Position numbers and translations under genes: made by a program. Under the pieces are notes generated by a model. The model did no database searches, was not told where the DNA came from, and saw only the letters and a list, made by a program, of their open reading frames with translations. From assembly GCA_020073495.1 (NCBI GenBank), contig JAIQFD010000003.1, positions 186,001 through 250,000 of the forward strand: DNA of 64,000 nt. The letters run 5' to 3'. Below are positions 34,377 to 40,521 of the stretch, one piece after another. Each line of letters opens with the position of its first letter. Positions within the stretch are counted from its first letter, which is position 1. The stretch comes from Terriglobia bacterium. Its GTDB lineage: Bacteria > Acidobacteriota > Terriglobia > Terriglobales > Acidobacteriaceae.

Positions 34377-34394
34377 GGCGACATTGTAAAGGCT

Positions 34395-34421
34395 CACCAC
34401 AGAGACACAGAGCGCACAGAG
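34395..34421 (+). repeat. Left copy of a 27-bp perfect inverted repeat (CACAGAG type)
   Basis: The 27 bases starting CACCACAGAGACACAGAG are exactly reverse-complementary to 40029-40055. The two copies bracket the methyltransferase-helicase-endonuclease genes. The motif is itself part of a dispersed low-complexity repeat family, seen also near 18.3 and 55.95 kb, so it is not proof of a mobile element. Confidence 0.75.
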
Positions 34422-34472
34422 GAGGTCGGGGGCCCCTACCCCCTGGGGGGATCAGTCGAAACAAAGGACTTG

Positions 34473-34495
34473 GCTCCTGATATCAAGGGGATCAG
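34473..34495 (+). repeat. 23-bp direct repeat, copy 1
   Basis: This begins GCTCCTGATATCAAGG and ends GGATCAG. An identical copy starts exactly 100 bases downstream. The core TGATATCA is a palindrome. Confidence 0.75.
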
Positions 34496-34572
34496 TAGAC
34501 CCTTCGGCTACGCTCAGGGTCTCGGCGGCGGACTCCCGGCTGCGCCTCACGCCCGCCAAACGCCTCGACTTA

Positions 34573-34595
34573 GCTCCTGATATCAAGGGGATCAG
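34573..34595 (+). repeat. 23-bp direct repeat, copy 2
   Basis: Identical to the copy at 34473-34495. The intervening 77 bases contain the CCTTCGGCTACGCTCAGGG element. Confidence 0.75.
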
Positions 34596-35020
34596 GAGGG
34601 GCGACAGATACAGGCCCCCTCCCCCTCCCCTGCGATATGTCGAAATAAAGGGGTTACGCGCGGGGATATGTCGATATGTCATTTGAAAGAACTTAAGGGC
34701 GCGGCGAGCACGCCAGGGCGGACGATGGGCCCGCTACATCCAGAGTAGCAAATCGAAGGATTGTGGACGGTGGGGTCAAGAATCGTTTGTGCAGGAGAAT
34801 CAATGGGTTGCGGCGCCGATAAATAAAGTTCTTGACATAGCTTAAAGCTATACAAATCCAGATTCCGCGCGTGTCTTTGTTTTCAGTAAGTTGCGGCGGG
34901 GAAAAAGACTCACCGCAAGAAACGCGGAGATACCCACCCACCGCAAACCGCGTTGGTTGGGCCACCCGCCCGACGAAAGACCTATTCGAGAGCGCAAAAT
35001 CGTGCTAATAATCGAGCAAA

Positions 35021-36043
35021 ATGCGACGGCTGAAGGCAATCGATTTGTTCGCTGGATGCGGCGGGCTAACCCTTGGTCTGAAACGCGCGGGTTTTCGCGT
35101 GGTCGGCGCCGTAGAAATCGACAAGACGGCCGCCGACACGTACGCGAAGAATCATCCCGAGGTGCGACTCTGGACTGACGACATAAAGAAGATCACCACG
35201 GCCGAGGTGCGCAGGAAACTTAACCTTAAGGCGGGCCAACTCGATCTCCTCGCCGGCTGCCCCCCGTGCCAGGGCTTTTCTTCGATGCGGAGGCTTAACG
35301 GAGGCCGTATCGTGCGCGACCGAAAGAATGCACTCATTCTCGATTTTCTCCGCATGGTTCGAGGCCTTTGTCCCAAGGCTGTAATGCTGGAAAACGTGCC
35401 GCATCTCGCGCACAGTCGTAGGTTTGCTCGATTCTGCCGGCAGCTTCGCCAGCTCGGCTACAACGTAGACTACGCCGTGCTGGACGCAGCGGATTATGGA
35501 GTGCCACAACGCAGACGGCGTGTGATCTGCTTCGGACTGCGGAGCGGAGAAGTGGATTTCGCCAGTCCCTCCCGCGGTGACAAAACAGTTGTAGACGCTA
35601 TCGGGCATCTTCCCTTGCCAAGGCGAAGCCATGACCCAATCCATAATGTTGCTGAACACCGCAGCAAGCAGGTGCGTGACATGATTCGCAGGATACCCAA
35701 GAATGGCGGCAGCCGCTCCGATCTGGGAGCGAAAGCCCAGCTTAGGTGTCACCGCGACTGCGACGGGTTTAAAGATGTGTACGGCAGGATGGCATGGCGA
35801 AGTATCGCCCCGACAATCACGACCGGATGCTTTAACCCTTCTAAGGGGAGATTTTTGCACCCGTCTCAAAACCGTTGCATCACTATGCGCGAGGCGGCCC
35901 TACTACAAACATTCCCACGCCGCTATTACTTTCCTGCCGACGCTGGGAAGGTGAAGCTCGCCGTACTCATCGGGAACGCTCTACCACCGGAATTCATCAG
36001 GAGACATGCGGTCCAGCTCAAAAAGTCGCTGACGCGCAGGTAA
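35021..36043 (+). CDS. dcm: DNA (cytosine-5) methyltransferase
   Basis: A 340-residue C5 methyltransferase with motifs in the standard order: I (DLFAGCGGLTLGL), IV with catalytic Cys83 (GCPPCQGFS), VI (LENV), VIII (PQRRRRV), IX (RSIAPTITT) and X (GNALPP). The target-recognition segment between VIII and IX is about 90 residues, so it reads a short site that cannot be predicted. Its TAA overlaps the next ATG (TAATG), coupling it to the helicase-nuclease gene. Base composition and codon use are less GC-biased than in flanking genes, suggesting acquisition by transfer. No cognate restriction endonuclease of a classical type is adjacent. TAATAAT lies 8 bases before the ATG. Confidence 0.95.
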   Translation: MRRLKAIDLFAGCGGLTLGLKRAGFRVVGAVEIDKTAADTYAKNHPEVRLWTDDIKKITTAEVRRKLNLKAGQLDLLAGCPPCQGFSSMRRLNGGRIVRDRKNALILDFLRMVRGLCPKAVMLENVPHLAHSRRFARFCRQLRQLGYNVDYAVLDAADYGVPQRRRRVICFGLRSGEVDFASPSRGDKTVVDAIGHLPLPRRSHDPIHNVAEHRSKQVRDMIRRIPKNGGSRSDLGAKAQLRCHRDCDGFKDVYGRMAWRSIAPTITTGCFNPSKGRFLHPSQNRCITMREAALLQTFPRRYYFPADAGKVKLAVLIGNALPPEFIRRHAVQLKKSLTRR

Positions 36044-38922
36044 TGCCAATTACCTACACCCCCGAGCAACTCAACGCCATCGGCCACCGGGGCGGCAATT
36101 TGCTCATAATTGCTTGTGCTGGATCCGGCAAAACAGAAGTGATTTCCCGTCGTATTGCTCAACTCGTCCAAGAGGGAGCAGACCGTCGCTCGATCGTGGC
36201 GTTTACTTTCACTGAGAAAGCCGCCGCAGCGCTCAAAGCTCGAATTCGAAAGCACCTTGAGGAGCTACTTCCCGCTGACCCTTCGCTCGGTGACATGTAC
36301 GTCGGCACTATTCACAGTTTCTGCTTGCAGGTCCTGAAAGAGCTGGACCCTAGTTACAGAAATTTCGAAGTCATTGATGAAGTTCGCCAAGCGGCACTCA
36401 TTTGTACGCACTTCAACGACGCCAATGGTCGCGGCCTCGGCTTGGACCACCTGCGGCACCTCGTTCGAACCAACGGCTTCTTCGACACAATTCGAGCGTT
36501 TACACGGTCGTTGACCGCAATCCACCTCGAATCCATTGATATCCGCCATTTGGGGGACGCGCATCTCCGGGAAGCCGTCGAGCGCTACAACAACCTTACG
36601 CGGCAGCGGCCGAACTACTACTTAGATTTCGACGGGATTATCGATGAAGCTGTCCGCAAACTCCGGACGGACCCTGAAGCGCTTCGCACAGCGAACAACA
36701 GATTCAAGCACGTTGTCGTCGATGAGTACCAAGACATTGACCCTAGGCAGGAAGAGCTGATTACCCTGCTGTCTCGACGTGCCGATTCGCTCTGCGTGGT
36801 TGGTGACGACGACCAATCCATTTACGGGTGGCGCGGTGCCGATATCACCAACATTCTGAATTTCCATCGGAGACATGCCCCGGTCCGTCGCATTCAGCTG
36901 GTCGACAACTTTCGGTCAACCCACGCAGTTGTCGAGGTCGCGAACGCTGCCGTGCGGCGGTTGGGAACCCGGCTCGATAAGGCGATGGTAGCCCGACACT
37001 GGGAACGGCAAGGGCAGGACGACATCCTAGTGGAAACAATGGCAGAACACGGCGACGTGCATCGGCAGACCTTTGCAACCGAAGCCGAAGAGGCGGGGTA
37101 CGTAGCAGATCGCATCCTCGCACATCGCGGCTCCGCCCTTGGTTCCGGCGAGCACGCCCGGGGCCTTGATTGGGGAGACATGGCAATTCTCCTCCGGAGT
37201 GTCCGAACGTCTGCGCACACCTTTGTTGAAGAGTTGAGTCGCCGCCGAATTCCACATGTGGTGAAGGGGACAGCGGGACTGTTTGACCACCGTGAGGTCC
37301 AGTTGGTCCAGGCCGTCTTCTGTTTCCTTGCTGGAATGGATTTTTCCCGGCGGAGCGACGGAAACTTCGTCCAGCTGGATGAACGACAAACAAGAGAGTT
37401 CATCCGAACGACACTCGAGGCCATGCGGGACGAGGGCGACGCACCTAACTCGGATTCCGCCCGCTTTCTTGAGTGGCTCGCTGCCCGGCGCAGGTTGTTA
37501 CAACAAGCCGCGCTTCCGCGAGACCGCCGGCCGGCACGTGTTGCTCGCCGAATATATCCACAAACCATCTTCCACGAAATGTTGGAGGCGCTGGGGACAA
37601 ACAGGGGGCCCACCGCGTGGCCGGATCAGATTTTGTTCAATCTTGGAAGATTTAGCAATCTGTTGACGCAGTACGAAGCAGTCCACCAATGGGTTACGCC
37701 AGGACTTCTATTCGGCTTGAACATTTTCTTGAATGGATGGGCATCTGGGACCGCCGACGAAGGAGGTCAAGACGATCCAACAGTGGTCAATGCGATACAG
37801 ATTCTGACCATCCACGCCGCCAAGGGACTTGAATGGCCGGTTGTGTTCATACCCAGCGTTTGCTCCCGGAGATTTCCGAGTTCGATGCGGACTCGCGGCA
37901 CGGAGGTCCTCCTTAACCCCGCCGAATACAATGCGCAACGCTACATTGGGGGCGACGATGGTGAGAGGCGCTTGTGGTATGTCGCTTTGACGAGGTGCCA
38001 AAAGTTTCTCCACGTCACATCCGTGGATCGCCGAAACTGCCGGCCTACGGAATTTCACCGAGAAATTCGCCACGATTACGTGAGAGACGACGGCGTTGAT
38101 CCTTCTGCCCCGCGACCTGTTCTTCCGCCCCGCCGACCCATCGAAACGGAATATCTGCCGACGAGCTACTCCGACCTGAACTATTTCTGGGAATGCCCCT
38201 TCGACTATCGGTTGCGTAAGTTAATGGGCTTTGGTCCGACAATCGGACAAGAGTTCGGTTACGGCGAGCAGATTCACAATTTGTTGGCTGCTATTCATGA
38301 ACGCGCGCGTACTGGGCCTGTGACGCGCGAGTGGGTTGAACAGTTGGTAGATACGCGCTTTAACTTGCGCTATACGAGAGATGAGCCTCTGGATCGCATG
38401 CGCGACGCCGCGAAGCGAACCCTCGTCGGTTACGTAACGCAATTTCCGGACGTGGCGAACCTTGTCTTTGAAGCTGAAAAGCCATTCGAATTCATGCTAG
38501 AAGATGCTCTGGTGACCGGCACAATCGACTTGCTCGAACGAGTCGAGGGTGCTGCAGGCGAACGCGTACCGGTCGGCGTCGTGGATTTCAAGACAGGTCT
38601 ACCTGACGATCCCGACGACCTCCAAGCTCGTATTGAAACCGTTGATCGCCAGCTTCGTTTGTACGCTATTGCCGTTCGGAGGGCTCTCAATTTAGACCCA
38701 AGACGAGCCGTTGCACACTTCATGTCCCCGGATCGGCAGCATGTACGCCAAGAAATTGATATAACCGAGCCGCGACTGGAAGACATCCGCCAGCAAGTGC
38801 GAGATGCAGTTATACAGATCAAGGCTGGAAATTTTCCCCGCAGACCTTGTGCTCGGGATCGATGCCCGACCTGCGATTTCCAGCGCATCTGTCCTGGGCG
38901 AGAACGAGGCCCTCATGCCTGA
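36043..38922 (+). CDS. UvrD/Rep-type helicase fused to a 4Fe-4S PD-(D/E)XK nuclease
   Basis: A 959-residue SF1A helicase-nuclease. Helicase motifs: Q (YTPEQLNAI), I (ACAGSGKT, K30), Ia (FTFTEKAAAALK), II (D227-E-Y-Q-D), III (GDDDQSIYGWRG, about 254-265), IV (NFRS), V (TIHAAKGLEW, 589-598) and VI (YVALTR, 646-651). The C-terminal nuclease has H745, D829 (GTIDLL), D848-x-K850 (VVDFKTG) and QLRLYAIAV. Cys718 (ECPFDYR) with C941-x2-C944-x5-C950 matches the AddB/Cas4 iron-sulfur cluster pattern. It should unwind and cut DNA. The combination resembles AddAB or a defence nuclease in one chain. It overlaps dcm by one base and vsr by eight. Confidence 0.93.
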   Translation: MPITYTPEQLNAIGHRGGNLLIIACAGSGKTEVISRRIAQLVQEGADRRSIVAFTFTEKAAAALKARIRKHLEELLPADPSLGDMYVGTIHSFCLQVLKELDPSYRNFEVIDEVRQAALICTHFNDANGRGLGLDHLRHLVRTNGFFDTIRAFTRSLTAIHLESIDIRHLGDAHLREAVERYNNLTRQRPNYYLDFDGIIDEAVRKLRTDPEALRTANNRFKHVVVDEYQDIDPRQEELITLLSRRADSLCVVGDDDQSIYGWRGADITNILNFHRRHAPVRRIQLVDNFRSTHAVVEVANAAVRRLGTRLDKAMVARHWERQGQDDILVETMAEHGDVHRQTFATEAEEAGYVADRILAHRGSALGSGEHARGLDWGDMAILLRSVRTSAHTFVEELSRRRIPHVVKGTAGLFDHREVQLVQAVFCFLAGMDFSRRSDGNFVQLDERQTREFIRTTLEAMRDEGDAPNSDSARFLEWLAARRRLLQQAALPRDRRPARVARRIYPQTIFHEMLEALGTNRGPTAWPDQILFNLGRFSNLLTQYEAVHQWVTPGLLFGLNIFLNGWASGTADEGGQDDPTVVNAIQILTIHAAKGLEWPVVFIPSVCSRRFPSSMRTRGTEVLLNPAEYNAQRYIGGDDGERRLWYVALTRCQKFLHVTSVDRRNCRPTEFHREIRHDYVRDDGVDPSAPRPVLPPRRPIETEYLPTSYSDLNYFWECPFDYRLRKLMGFGPTIGQEFGYGEQIHNLLAAIHERARTGPVTREWVEQLVDTRFNLRYTRDEPLDRMRDAAKRTLVGYVTQFPDVANLVFEAEKPFEFMLEDALVTGTIDLLERVEGAAGERVPVGVVDFKTGLPDDPDDLQARIETVDRQLRLYAIAVRRALNLDPRRAVAHFMSPDRQHVRQEIDITEPRLEDIRQQVRDAVIQIKAGNFPRRPCARDRCPTCDFQRICPGRERGPHA

Positions 38923-39325
38923 CAACCTCACCAAAGCCCAGCGCAGCCACTGCATGTCACGGGTCCGCACGGCAGAAACTGACATCGAGAACGCCGTCGC
39001 TTCGGTTGTTCGAGGGCTGAAACTGCGGTTCCGCCGGAACGACAGTCGCCTTCCAGGAAAGCCCGACATCGTTGTCCCTGCTCATAGGCTTGCGATTTTT
39101 GTCGACGGCGATTTTTGGCATGGCTACCGGTTTCCGCAATGGTGTCACAAGGTTTCGCCCTTCTGGAGAACGAAAATAGCCCGCAACCGCAGGCGCGACC
39201 AGCGGAATTTTGCGAAGTTGCGACGGTTAGGCTGGCGTCCCGTCCGGATTTGGCAGCACGACATCGAAGCGGGGTCGGAAACTGTAGCGAAGAAACTTCG
39301 TGTCAGGCTGTATTCCACCACTTGA
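38915..39325 (+). CDS. vsr: Vsr-like endonuclease
   Basis: A 136-residue protein of the very-short-patch-repair endonuclease fold. It keeps the metal-binding Asp51 in LPGKPDIVV and the FWH triad (67-69), then KIARNRRRDQRN and LGWRPVRIW. Compared with E. coli Vsr as I remember it, His64 is Asp, and the zinc ligands Cys66, His71 and Cys73 are Asp, Tyr and Phe, so the structural zinc site looks lost. Classical Vsr nicks T:G mismatches that arise at Dcm sites. The altered active site leaves open a restriction role instead. Its first eight bases overlap the helicase-nuclease gene, so the three genes form one operon with dcm. Confidence 0.87.
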   Translation: MPDNLTKAQRSHCMSRVRTAETDIENAVASVVRGLKLRFRRNDSRLPGKPDIVVPAHRLAIFVDGDFWHGYRFPQWCHKVSPFWRTKIARNRRRDQRNFAKLRRLGWRPVRIWQHDIEAGSETVAKKLRVRLYSTT

Positions 39326-39480
39326 CCTCACAGCGAGCTGCGAGGCACGTCACCTGTCAAGACGTACGCGCGTCAAGAATCAGGCCTTAGCTTAGGATTG
39401 GCGGTAGTGTTCTGCCGTCCCTACGGGACTCGGGATCTATTTCGGACCTGTACCCCGGGCTTGCGCCCGGGGCTAAATTC

Positions 39481-39572
39481 TTACGCCCGCTAAAGCGGGC
39501 TCTTCCTCTGAAATGAAACGTCTACCCCGGGCTTGCGCCCGGGGCTAAATTCTTACGCCCGCAAGGCGGGCT
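39481..39572 (+). repeat. 92-bp perfect direct repeat, copy 1
   Basis: This block starts TTACGCCCGCTAAAGCGGGC and ends CAAGGCGGGCT; as read by eye every base matches the copy 161 bases downstream. It contains one full 40-base TACCCCGGGC unit. Perfect identity implies a recent duplication or ongoing gene conversion. Confidence 0.8.
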
Positions 39573-39611
39573 CCTCAGCGGCTAAAGCCGGTACTAATTT
39601 GGATGGGGAAA

Positions 39612-39637
39612 GCGGCACTGAAGTGCCGCACTACCTC
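39612..39637 (+). repeat. GCGGCACTGAAGTGCCGC palindrome, copy 1
   Basis: An 8-bp stem with a two-base GA centre, followed by ACTACCTC. The same 26 bases recur at 39965-39990. Confidence 0.75.
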
Positions 39638-39641
39638 ATCG

Positions 39642-39733
39642 TTACGCCCGCTAAAGCGGGCTCTTCCTCTGAAATGAAACGTCTACCCCGGGCTTGCGCC
39701 CGGGGCTAAATTCTTACGCCCGCAAGGCGGGCT
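39642..39733 (+). repeat. 92-bp perfect direct repeat, copy 2
   Basis: Second copy of the block at 39481-39572. It is followed by GTGCCTCGG instead of CCTCAGCGG, marking the end of the duplicated segment. Confidence 0.8.
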
Positions 39734-39964
39734 GTGCCTCGGATGAATGCTCCGCCCCTTGTTCGCGGACTGAAGTCCGCGAATCCCGGATCGCGGAGCG
39801 AGTCAGGGCTAAAGTCCTGACCTACCGAGCGCGGGCCTACCGCCCGGGGCTCCGTTCTTATGCCCGCTAGAGCGGCCCTTCGGCTTCGCTCAGGGCTCGG
39901 CTCCTGGGGAGCCTCGGCTTCATACCTCAGCGGCTAAAGCCGGGGGATTTTGGGAACGCGGCAC

Positions 39965-39990
39965 GCGGCACTGAAGTGCCGCACTACCTC
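39965..39990 (+). repeat. GCGGCACTGAAGTGCCGC palindrome, copy 2
   Basis: Identical to 39612-39637. It is preceded in both cases by a CAGCGGCTAAAGCCGG unit (39576-39591 and 39928-39943), so a composite of two palindromes has been copied. Confidence 0.75.
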
Positions 39991-40028
39991 CGCGTGCTCG
40001 ATGCGGAAGCGCAATTGATCGCCTCGTT

Positions 40029-40055
40029 CTCTGTGCGCTCTGTGTCTCTGTGGTG
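40029..40055 (-). repeat. Right copy of the 27-bp inverted repeat
   Basis: Reverse complement of 34395-34421. A further diverged copy of the same motif family (TTCTCTGCGCTCTCGGCG and following) is at about 40098-40125, as if two repeat copies stood side by side. Confidence 0.75.
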
Positions 40056-40521
40056 GGCCCTTTCTCCCTCCGCGTGCATTCGCGCGGCCAATGGATTTCT
40101 CTGCGCTCTCGGCGTTCTCGGCGGTGAAAAATGATCGATGACAGCCGAGGGCGGCTGTCCCACACACTCCCACACGGTCAGGTCCGGTTGCCAGCGCCTC
40201 AGGCCCCTTAGTTACTCCTCCGACAATTTTTGTACCCGATGCATCAACACCACTACCCCTAGTGGTCAATCCTTCGGAACGCCACGAAATATGGGCACTT
40301 AGGGCGAGTGAATACCCATTCAGAGCGGTAGATATCCAAGAAAACCGGAAGAAACGGGAAAGACTTCCTTGACACTACCGGCAGTGACACTGCTATAACT
40401 CGCACCGCAGACGTTTCCCCCCGAGAAAGCAGAGGATCTCTTCCTCACAGGGCCCGGCCGTTCGGAGGCCGCCCCGCAAGAAACGCGGGCAGTTTGATCT
40501 GTGGAAAGGGCACAAGCAGCT
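40056..40521. other. Non-coding region upstream of the HTH-pilM operon
   Basis: No gene is supported. It contains a diverged CTCTG-type repeat, a GACAGCC/GGCTGTC hairpin (40140-40159), and the promoter described separately. The stretch 40430-40500 (CCCGAGAAAGC, CCCGGCCGTTCGGAGGCC, CCCCGCAAGAAACGCGGG) can form small hairpins and would be the transcript leader of about 115 bases. Confidence 0.5.
40369..40399 (+). promoter_or_regulatory. Sigma70-type promoter of the HTH-pilMNOPQ operon
   Basis: TTGACA (40369-40374) and TATAAC (40394-40399) are separated by 19 bases, longer than ideal, but the -10 carries an upstream TGC, the extended -10 motif that can compensate. The direct word GACACT occurs at both the -35 and 10 bases before the -10. 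The promoter lies about 120 bases before the first gene. Confidence 0.6.

What the first reader, a model, noticed from the sequence alone, without database searches (positions are those of the whole stretch)
35021..39325. Three-gene dcm - helicase/FeS-nuclease - vsr operon, a candidate undescribed defence system
Seen: a C5 methyltransferase, a 959-residue UvrD-type helicase fused to an AddB/Cas4-like nuclease, and a Vsr-like endonuclease overlap end to end (TAATG, then an 8-base overlap). Their composition is less GC-rich than the neighbours and they lie between repeat DNA. Known: Dcm-Vsr pairs exist, and helicase-nuclease proteins act in anti-phage systems. Inference: the methyltransferase marks self DNA while the helicase-nuclease, with the Vsr-like protein as a possible nicking or mismatch-targeting enzyme, degrades unmarked DNA. 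I do not recall a named system with exactly this trio, but I cannot search.
Basis: partly seen in the sequence, partly recalled or inferred. Interest (0 to 1): 0.88.

Follow-up and report, generated by a model that had tools for sequence, protein, structure and literature searches.

The report
Methylase, helicase-nuclease, Vsr defence operon
A three-gene bacterial operon that probably marks the cell's own DNA with a methyl group and destroys DNA lacking the mark; the trio was already predicted as a defence system in 2017 but I found no test of it, and its methylase appears to keep one DNA target while being paired with several unrelated destroyer proteins across many phyla.

Summary
In detail: dcm (35021-36043), a 959-residue UvrD helicase fused to a Cas4/RecB-type nuclease with four conserved cysteines (36043-38922) and a Vsr-fold gene (38915-39325) overlap as described. 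"Undescribed" is not right: Hudaiberdiev et al. 2017 (PMC5704561, section 8 read) report UvrD-Cas4 next to Dcm, several with Vsr, as a predicted defence component. I found no experimental test. What I add: of 80 genome loci fetched with the Dcm, 31 have UvrD-Cas4 (at least 900 nt) and 22 have this gene order, in at least 11 phyla. The listed catalytic residues of the helicase-nuclease are intact in 32 of 32. Within this Dcm group the target-recognition region is more conserved (0.72) than the catalytic core (0.56), whatever the partner: UvrD-Cas4, GHKL-ATPase, Z1, TOPRIM-type ATPase or kinase-AAA; sister groups with another target region exist. So one mark seems shared by at least five effectors. 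Vsr occurs in 14 of 15 amply flanked UvrD-Cas4 loci but 8 of 27 others (not shown independent of phylogeny). Most likely restriction-modification-like, Vsr nicking unmarked DNA and the helicase-nuclease degrading it; Vsr as plain T:G repair remains possible.

The parts
35021..36043 (+). dcm: C5-cytosine DNA methyltransferase, 340 aa; catalytic PPCQ, ENV and QRRR motifs; target-recognition region about residues 226-284
   Evidence: (TIGR00675 176.1 bits, cut-off 100.65)
36043..38922 (+). uvrD-cas4: SF1A helicase (residues about 1-690) fused to a PD-(D/E)XK (RecB/AddB/Cas4-type) nuclease with four conserved cysteines (718, 941, 944, 950; iron-sulphur site inferred), 959 aa
   Evidence: (25 listed catalytic and cysteine columns 32 of 32)
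38915..39325 (+). vsr: Vsr-fold endonuclease, 136 aa; E25, D51, H69, D95 kept; E. coli H64 is D here, and two zinc-ligand Cys positions (recalled) are D66 and H115
   Evidence: (TIGR00632 114.7 bits, cut-off 97.85)
34388..40173 (.). probable extent of the acquired stretch: homology to the same-genus genome G396 stops at 34388 and resumes at 40174
   Evidence: G396 breaks into contigs inside, so no clean empty site was seen
34388..34421 (.). left arm of a 34-nt inverted repeat (94% complementary to 40029-40062)
   Evidence: 16-base core occurs 3 times exactly in the 3.7 Mb genome, twice here
40029..40062 (.). right arm of the same inverted repeat
39409..39995 (.). intergenic GC-rich repeat units downstream of vsr, two of them identical over 92 nt

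Best explanation
A self-contained restriction-modification-like defence operon. Dcm methylates one fixed C5-cytosine target on the cell's DNA (inferred from intact motifs and a conserved target-recognition region; the motif itself is unknown). Incoming DNA lacks the mark. The Vsr-fold nuclease, the only other trio member with a site-directed precedent, nicks such DNA at or near the target (inferred). The UvrD-Cas4 protein loads at the nick, unwinds 3'-5' and degrades the DNA with its Fe-S nuclease, in the manner of AdnAB/AddAB (motor and nuclease motifs shown; loading and polarity inferred from the family). The module moves horizontally, and Dcms of the same group work with other effectors elsewhere.
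For: Operon overlaps. Same order in 22 of 80 loci; UvrD-Cas4 above 150 bits in 32 of 80 genome loci against 0 of 43 viral loci with distant Dcms (a different collection). Listed helicase, nuclease and Cys columns 32 of 32. Dcm-linked UvrD-Cas4s form one starred set (95, 36 rows, one of which has Vsr but no close Dcm) apart from type III-linked ones (quick tree with long-branch warnings). Vsr within 6 kb of Dcm in 14 of 15 UvrD-Cas4 loci against 8 of 27 others with ample flanks, Fisher p 7.5e-5. Distance correlations in 29 trio loci: UvrD-Cas4 with Vsr given Dcm 0.36, UvrD-Cas4 with Dcm given Vsr 0.10. Other partners of the Dcm group are defence-type genes by PADLOC/Pfam. Patchy: Dcm at 1e-40 in 2 of 31 relatives, the window's included, not in the same-genus genome. 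Vsr-type domains predicted active occur in the ARMADA defence helicases (PMC12458937, passages).
Against: Vsr follows Dcm more closely than it follows UvrD-Cas4 (partial 0.54 against 0.36), and 20 of 50 loci without UvrD-Cas4 also have Vsr, as expected of a mismatch-repair guard. The phylogeny-aware test of the Vsr link had only 4 usable pairs. L040 has Dcm and UvrD-Cas4 with no Vsr found in 10 kb either side. F67, W68, W84 and M14, the counterparts of residues I recall as the E. coli T:G wedge, are kept in 49-50 of 50. No expression, cleavage, methylome or plaque data. The window's trio is not in a defence island.
Confidence: 0.48

Rival explanations
1. Same defence reading, but Vsr is only a guard: it repairs T:G mismatches made by deamination of the Dcm-methylated cytosines, as in E. 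coli, and UvrD-Cas4 finds unmarked DNA by another cue (a complex with Dcm, free ends, or host nucleases).
For: Vsr distance follows Dcm best (0.54 partial); Vsr also sits beside Dcm with GHKL, Z1, kinase or TOPRIM partners; E25, D51, H69, F67, W68 kept in 49-50 of 50; V.NgoAXIII and V.Nme18VIP, also with D at the H64 position, recognise T:G mismatches in vitro according to PMC12907096.
Against: Vsr is missing from 19 of 27 amply flanked Dcm loci without UvrD-Cas4 but from 1 of 15 with it; a deamination guard should be needed equally by all. UvrD-Cas4 has no recognisable DNA-sequence-reading domain in the Pfam scan.
Confidence: 0.3
2. Not defence but repair: Dcm makes 5mC, Vsr nicks T:G, and UvrD-Cas4 is a dedicated excision helicase-nuclease for a long-patch version of very short patch repair.
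For: All three activities fit a repair pathway; [quoted passage not shown] VSP repair uses a helicase after the nick (PMC12907096 passages).
Against: Patchy presence, partner swapping for BREX, GHKL and kinase modules, and UvrD-Cas4 relatives beside type III restriction genes.
Confidence: 0.1
3. Addiction-type selfish element: Vsr plus UvrD-Cas4 harm cells that lose Dcm, so the operon persists like a post-segregational killing RM system, with defence secondary.
For: In Caulobacter, loss of the cytosine methylase ScmA induces an SOS response that strictly depends on the Vsr-like VsrA (PMC12907096, Discussion read). The trio is patchy and looks horizontally acquired.
Against: In that paper scmA and vsrA are unlinked, VsrA over-expression did not worsen the damage, and the authors favour rare double cutting at T:G mismatches; compatible with, rather than opposed to, defence.
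Confidence: 0.08

Closest known systems
UvrD-Cas4 / Dcm / Vsr loci of Hudaiberdiev et al. 2017 (PMC5704561; abstract, section 8 and Fig. 6 legend read)
   Same: UvrD helicase fused to a pfam12705 Cas4-like nuclease, next to Dcm, several with Vsr; called components of multiple microbial defence systems
   Different: Nothing in gene content. I add order counts, active-site conservation, a Dcm-linked clade of the helicase-nuclease, and the conserved target-recognition region. Their sequences were not compared with the window's.
MORC/paraMORC restriction systems of Iyer et al. 2008 (PMC2292703, passages read)
   Same: DNA methylases (mostly cytosine) plus Vsr plus ATP-driven motor and nuclease; helicases proposed to unwind from nicks; high lateral mobility
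   Different: Their motors are GHKL ATPases with superfamily II helicases; here a superfamily I helicase-nuclease. A GHKL ATPase occurs with the same Dcm group in 24 of 80 loci; whether it is one of their families was not tested.
E. coli Dcm-Vsr (very short patch repair)
   Same: Methylase with a Vsr-fold gene; fold match to 1cw0, E 3.6e-10
   Different: A helicase-nuclease gene lies between them; H64 and two zinc-ligand cysteines (recalled) of E. coli Vsr are replaced
AdnAB / AddAB / RecBCD helicase-nucleases
   Same: UvrD-type motor and RecB-type nuclease; PDB matches to UvrD, AddA, AdnB and RecB
   Different: One polypeptide with no partner subunit in the operon; rare in the own phylum
Caulobacter ScmA / VsrA (PMC12907096, passages and Discussion read)
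   Same: C5 methylase with a Vsr-like protein carrying D at the H64 position; loss of methylation causes Vsr-dependent damage
   Different: Genes unlinked; ScmA's and VsrA's sequences were not compared here
ARMADA (YprA helicase) defence systems (PMC12458937, passages read)
   Same: A helicase joined to a Vsr-type nuclease in a defence system tested against phages
   Different: Superfamily II YprA helicase with fused Vsr domain; no Dcm-UvrD-Cas4 trio in the passages seen

Membership tests
UvrD-Cas4 / Dcm / Vsr context of Hudaiberdiev 2017 | UvrD-like SF1 helicase fused to a pfam12705 nuclease | tested here: met
   PF00580, PF13361 and PF12705 (PDDEXK_1) in one 959-aa protein
UvrD-Cas4 / Dcm / Vsr context of Hudaiberdiev 2017 | Neighbouring dcm and (in several) vsr | tested here: met
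UvrD-Cas4 / Dcm / Vsr context of Hudaiberdiev 2017 | Same monophyletic UvrD-Cas4 branch as the published loci | not tested
C5 DNA methyltransferase (Dcm superfamily) | TIGR00675 above cut-off; catalytic motifs | tested here: met
   176.1 against 100.65 bits; C80, P82, C83, E124, N125, V126, Q163, R165, R167 83 of 83, P81 82 of 83
C5 DNA methyltransferase (Dcm superfamily) | CCWGG as target | not testable with these tools
   no methylome; the target motif is unknown
Vsr mismatch endonuclease | TIGR00632 above cut-off and Vsr fold | tested here: met
   114.7 against 97.85 bits; model pLDDT 91.7, best PDB match 1cw0
Vsr mismatch endonuclease | E. coli catalytic set E25, D51, H64, H69, D97 (named in PMC12907096) | tested here: not met
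   E25, D51, H69 and D95 (= D97) kept; position 64 is D here (D 33, H 13, N 2, E 1, Q 1 of 50). Other D-type Vsr proteins are called functional in PMC12907096
Vsr mismatch endonuclease | Zinc-ligand cysteines of E. coli Vsr (positions recalled) | tested here: not met
   positions 66 and 115 are D and H in the window (alignment, counts)
Vsr mismatch endonuclease | T:G mismatch nicking | not testable with these tools
   needs an enzyme assay
AdnAB / AddAB / RecBCD | UvrD motor plus RecB-type nuclease with H, D, DxK, QxxxY and four cysteines | tested here: met
   these columns 32 of 32
AdnAB / AddAB / RecBCD | Equivalog score (AddA TIGR02785, RecB TIGR00609) | tested here: not met
   173.2 against 707.65 and 136.2 against 696.05 bits
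AdnAB / AddAB / RecBCD | Second subunit encoded alongside | tested here: not met
   adjacent genes are dcm, vsr, a LOG-family gene and an HTH gene
Classical type II restriction-modification | A separate site-specific restriction endonuclease beside the methylase | tested here: inconclusive
   only the Vsr-fold protein could play this part; no other nuclease of that kind among the genes scanned
BREX | pglZ and brxL beside the methylase | tested here: not met
   not among the window's nine scanned neighbours, although 9 of 80 loci have PglZ and 11 of 80 BrxL near this Dcm

The most novel reading that the evidence does not exclude
One methylation mark serves as a shared self-label for a whole set of unrelated defence effectors. 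This Dcm group recognises a single DNA sequence in bacteria and archaea of many phyla (target-recognition region frozen while the rest diverges), and at least five effector types (UvrD-Cas4, GHKL-ATPase, Z1 protein, TOPRIM-type ATPase, kinase-AAA) attack DNA lacking that one mark, so that effectors are interchangeable between species without changing the mark. Ordinary RM systems diversify their target; this group would have standardised it.
Probability: 0.35. Interest if true: 0.75.

Novelty: new member of a known kind. Interest (0 to 1): 0.45.

Why it matters
It turns a published but, as far as I could find, untested prediction into a compact three-gene, 4.3-kb test case: one clone, three gene removals and one methylome would show whether UvrD-Cas4 proteins are restriction effectors and whether Vsr-fold proteins can attack as well as repair. 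If the conserved target region means a shared mark, one motif determined in one species would predict self-marking in many genomes and explain how unrelated effectors swap places beside the same methylase.

Tried and rejected
Rejected: 'undescribed system' (in print). Rejected as unsupported: a housekeeping AddAB/AdnAB-type repair gene (equivalog scores far below cut-off; rare in the own phylum). DISARM and Druantia were considered because the methylase scores against DruM and DrmMII models, but it matches 63 PADLOC models in all, as a generic C5 methylase would, and none of the nine scanned neighbours matched a model of either (the HTH gene gave a weak mads_1 hit only).

Led nowhere: plasmid search with the helicase-nuclease (no match at 1e-60); naming the methylation target from the literature (PMC7988955 and PMC8936443 passages: no link to this group shown); PMC9122126 on P2 hotspots (no occurrence of five methylase or GHKL terms); phylogeny-aware test of Vsr with UvrD-Cas4 (only 4 independent pairs); a clean empty site (the same-genus genome breaks into contigs there).

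Biases and results that temper the reading: the 80 loci are the best 80 of 413 relatives by similarity, and one of the two search patterns lay in the Dcm target region. I repeated the conservation test on 37 viral-contig Dcms found with two catalytic-region patterns, but these 37 were themselves divided from the rest by a whole-length score (440 bits, chosen after seeing the list). So sister groups with another target region exist; none of those 10 loci has UvrD-Cas4. I lowered the probability of the novel case from 0.4 to 0.35 for this. The window's own target region is less typical: 0.64 against the viral close set, core 0.53. The limit of about 550 bits for the own-phylum count (8 of 392) was chosen afterwards, and that search scored at most two candidates per genome. 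Rows dropped: for the Vsr Fisher test, 38 of 80 loci with short flanks (all 80: 26/4 against 20/30, p 5e-5), with UvrD-Cas4 counted only above 2000 nt, so that L049 with a fragment counts as 'without'; one distant-Dcm row over 500 aa was left out (42 of 43 kept) and pairs over 80% identical were skipped. Pair and locus counts treat related sequences as independent.

Full report
WHAT IS THERE. Three plus-strand genes overlap end to end: dcm 35021-36043, uvrD-cas4 36043-38922 and vsr 38915-39325. The TAATG junction and the 8-base overlap are as described. Pfam and NCBIfam identify a C5 methyltransferase, a UvrD helicase with a C-terminal PD-(D/E)XK nuclease, and a Vsr protein above its curated cut-off. 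The G+C content is 0.557-0.579 per kb over the operon. Nine neighbours were scanned: a penicillin-binding protein, RodA/FtsW, RNase E/G, a LOG-family protein, a helix-turn-helix protein, PilM, PilN, PilO and a secretin; only the HTH protein gave a (weak) PADLOC hit. So the trio stands alone among housekeeping genes.

HOW IT GOT THERE. Of 31 relatives searched, only the window's genome and G406 have this Dcm at 1e-40; the same-genus genome G396 (listed as 100% complete) does not. The homology of the flanks to G396 stops at 34388 and resumes at 40174, although G396 breaks into contigs in between. A 34-nt inverted repeat lies at both edges; its 16-base core occurs three times in the genome, two of them here. 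G406 carries the same trio in the same order (L239), and so does G296 (L223); G073 has Vsr-Dcm with an opposed, split UvrD-Cas4.

HOW COMMON IS THE TRIO. A scan of one genome per species with the Dcm alignment gave 413 relatives, of which the best 80 were kept, at 51-62% identity. In these, UvrD-Cas4 matches above 150 bits occur in 32 of 80, one of them a 771-nt fragment (L049); 31 of 80 have at least 900 nt of it, and 22 of 80 have Dcm, UvrD-Cas4, Vsr in that order on one strand. Of those 22, 20 have a phylum by record title, 11 phyla in all. The Dcm loci as a whole fall into 23 phylum-rank groups (77 of 80 assigned), two archaeal records among them (L027, L076). In viral contigs, 4 of 37 close Dcms have UvrD-Cas4 in the locus and 0 of 43 distant ones. 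The reverse view: in 392 genomes of the window's phylum (at most two candidates scored per genome), 8 have a UvrD-Cas4 above about 550 bits (limit chosen afterwards); 3 of these 8 have Dcm and Vsr, the window's included, and two of the other five lie near a contig end. Of eight UvrD-Cas4 loci without a close Dcm that I looked at, L221, L222, L005 and L010 lie beside type III restriction genes, L007 beside a TmtA-like ATPase, L003 beside Vsr; L225 has only a weak HNH neighbour and L224 was not scanned.

THE METHYLASE AND ITS PARTNERS. Clustering of neighbours within 7 kb in the 80 loci, with one representative of each cluster identified by Pfam and PADLOC, gives: Vsr 48 loci; UvrD-Cas4 30; a GHKL ATPase 24; a TOPRIM-type ATPase (PADLOC HEC-04, AriA-like) 12; BrxL 11 and PglZ 9, with a PglX identified in one; a CARF6-STK-AAA kinase protein 9 and a thymidine-phosphorylase-like protein 9; Z1 6. 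On a quick Dcm tree with many weak forks (39 of 80 open), UvrD-Cas4 presence needs at least 16 changes over 56 rows and partner class 38 over 83. By contrast, all 35 Dcm-linked UvrD-Cas4s in the tree fall with one Vsr-only row into a single starred set (long-branch warnings; the window's protein is itself a long branch). In E. coli Z247 a Dcm found by DNA similarity to viral locus L103 and an ATP-binding protein sit between replication endonuclease and portal genes of a P2-type prophage.

A CONSERVED TARGET REGION. Over the 83 Dcms, mean pairwise identity is 0.56 in the catalytic part (5-170) and 0.72 in the target-recognition region (226-284). It is 0.55 against 0.72 among 37 viral close Dcms, and 0.53 against 0.64 between the window and those 37. 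In 42 distant Dcms it is the other way round, 0.39 against 0.33. All ten pairings of five partner classes give 0.67-0.75 in the target region. A motif across it is present in 82 of 83, 35 of 37 and 0 of 42. Against this: among 47 viral Dcms with a core at least 50% identical to a genome-locus Dcm, 10 have a target region of only 0.43-0.52 and the other 37 one of 0.64 or more. The picture is thus a group with one target region, sharply set off from sister groups with another, and inside the group the partner changes while the target region does not. The simplest reading is one DNA target for the group; the motif itself is unknown, and selection of the loci by similarity favours this picture.

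ACTIVE SITES. In 32 UvrD-Cas4 proteins the 25 listed helicase, nuclease and cysteine columns are invariant. The model (pLDDT 80.5) matches UvrD, AddA, AdnB and RecB (the VIA rows cover mainly residues 1-689). In 50 Vsr proteins E25, D51, W68, H69, W84, K87, R94 and D95 are invariant; position 64 is D in 33 and H in 13; the Cys positions vary. The Vsr model (pLDDT 91.7) matches E. coli Vsr 1cw0 at E 3.6e-10.

WHAT VSR DOES. For an attacking part: Vsr is present in 14 of 15 amply flanked loci with UvrD-Cas4 and in 8 of 27 without (p 7.5e-5; with all 80 loci 26 of 30 and 20 of 50, p 5e-5). UvrD-Cas4 has no DNA-reading domain in Pfam, and UvrD-type motors need a nick or end (established knowledge). 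Vsr-type nuclease domains predicted active belong to ARMADA defence helicases (PMC12458937). For a guard: Vsr divergence follows Dcm best (partial 0.54, against 0.36 with UvrD-Cas4; UvrD-Cas4 with Dcm 0.10), Vsr also accompanies other partners, and the aromatic wedge residues are kept (their role is recalled). The phylogeny-aware test had four pairs, with Vsr going the same way in 1.3 and the other way in 0.2 on average: no verdict. In Caulobacter, a Vsr-like protein with the same D causes SOS induction only when the cytosine methylase is missing; the authors suggest double cutting at T:G mismatches.

PRIOR ART. Hudaiberdiev et al. 2017 (PMC5704561; abstract and section 8 read) report UvrD-Cas4 with Dcm and, in several loci, Vsr, and conclude that these fusions are components of multiple defence systems. 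Iyer et al. 2008 (PMC2292703, passages) describe methylases and Vsr with MORC ATPases and propose unwinding from nicks. 'UvrD-Cas4' as a term was found in that one 2017 paper only, and Vsr with UvrD and Cas4 in that one only. In these searches (listings, with passages of the papers named) I saw no experimental test of the trio and no statement that the target region of this Dcm is conserved across partners; subscription papers and most preprints are outside the library.

VERDICT. It is a new member of a published but apparently untested kind. The conserved target region with swappable effectors is the part a specialist might find surprising.

Noticed in passing
34388-34421 and 40029-40062: A 34-nt inverted repeat brackets the operon and its downstream repeats; its core has 3 exact copies in the genome, 2 of them here, and homology to the same-genus genome stops at its left arm.
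   Followed up: partly
39481-39572 and 39642-39733: Two identical 92-nt intergenic units, with related shorter units from 39409 to 39995, GC-rich and rich in short inverted repeats.
   Followed up: no
L030:11097-14978, L043:2721-3932 and related loci: A CARF6-STK-AAA protein (PADLOC) and a thymidine-phosphorylase-like protein (weak Pfam hit, below cut-off), each beside this Dcm in 9 of 80 loci and together in 8: a possible signalling or nucleotide-depleting effector pair.
   Followed up: no
L025, L039, L040, L048, L051, L068, L075, L096: PglZ and BrxL lie upstream of Dcm and UvrD-Cas4 (with Vsr in all but L040); PglX was identified in L040. The trio may also serve as an add-on to BREX, giving one locus two methylases of different kinds.
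   Followed up: partly
L180:8001-11046 (E. coli Z247): A Dcm (found by DNA similarity to viral locus L103) plus an ATP-binding protein gene between replication endonuclease and portal genes of a P2-type prophage.
   Followed up: partly
L138-L148 (viral contigs): Sister group of Dcms with a similar catalytic core (about 0.5 identical) but another target-recognition region (0.43-0.52); several have Vsr and none has UvrD-Cas4 in the locus.
   Followed up: partly
L226:9415-12371: In G073 the UvrD-Cas4 gene is split into two overlapping frames and lies on the opposite strand from intact-looking vsr and dcm: a possible decaying effector with the mark kept.
   Followed up: no
L076:251-4198: A contig titled as a nanoarchaeon carries Dcm with an opposed UvrD-Cas4 and no Vsr found.
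   Followed up: no
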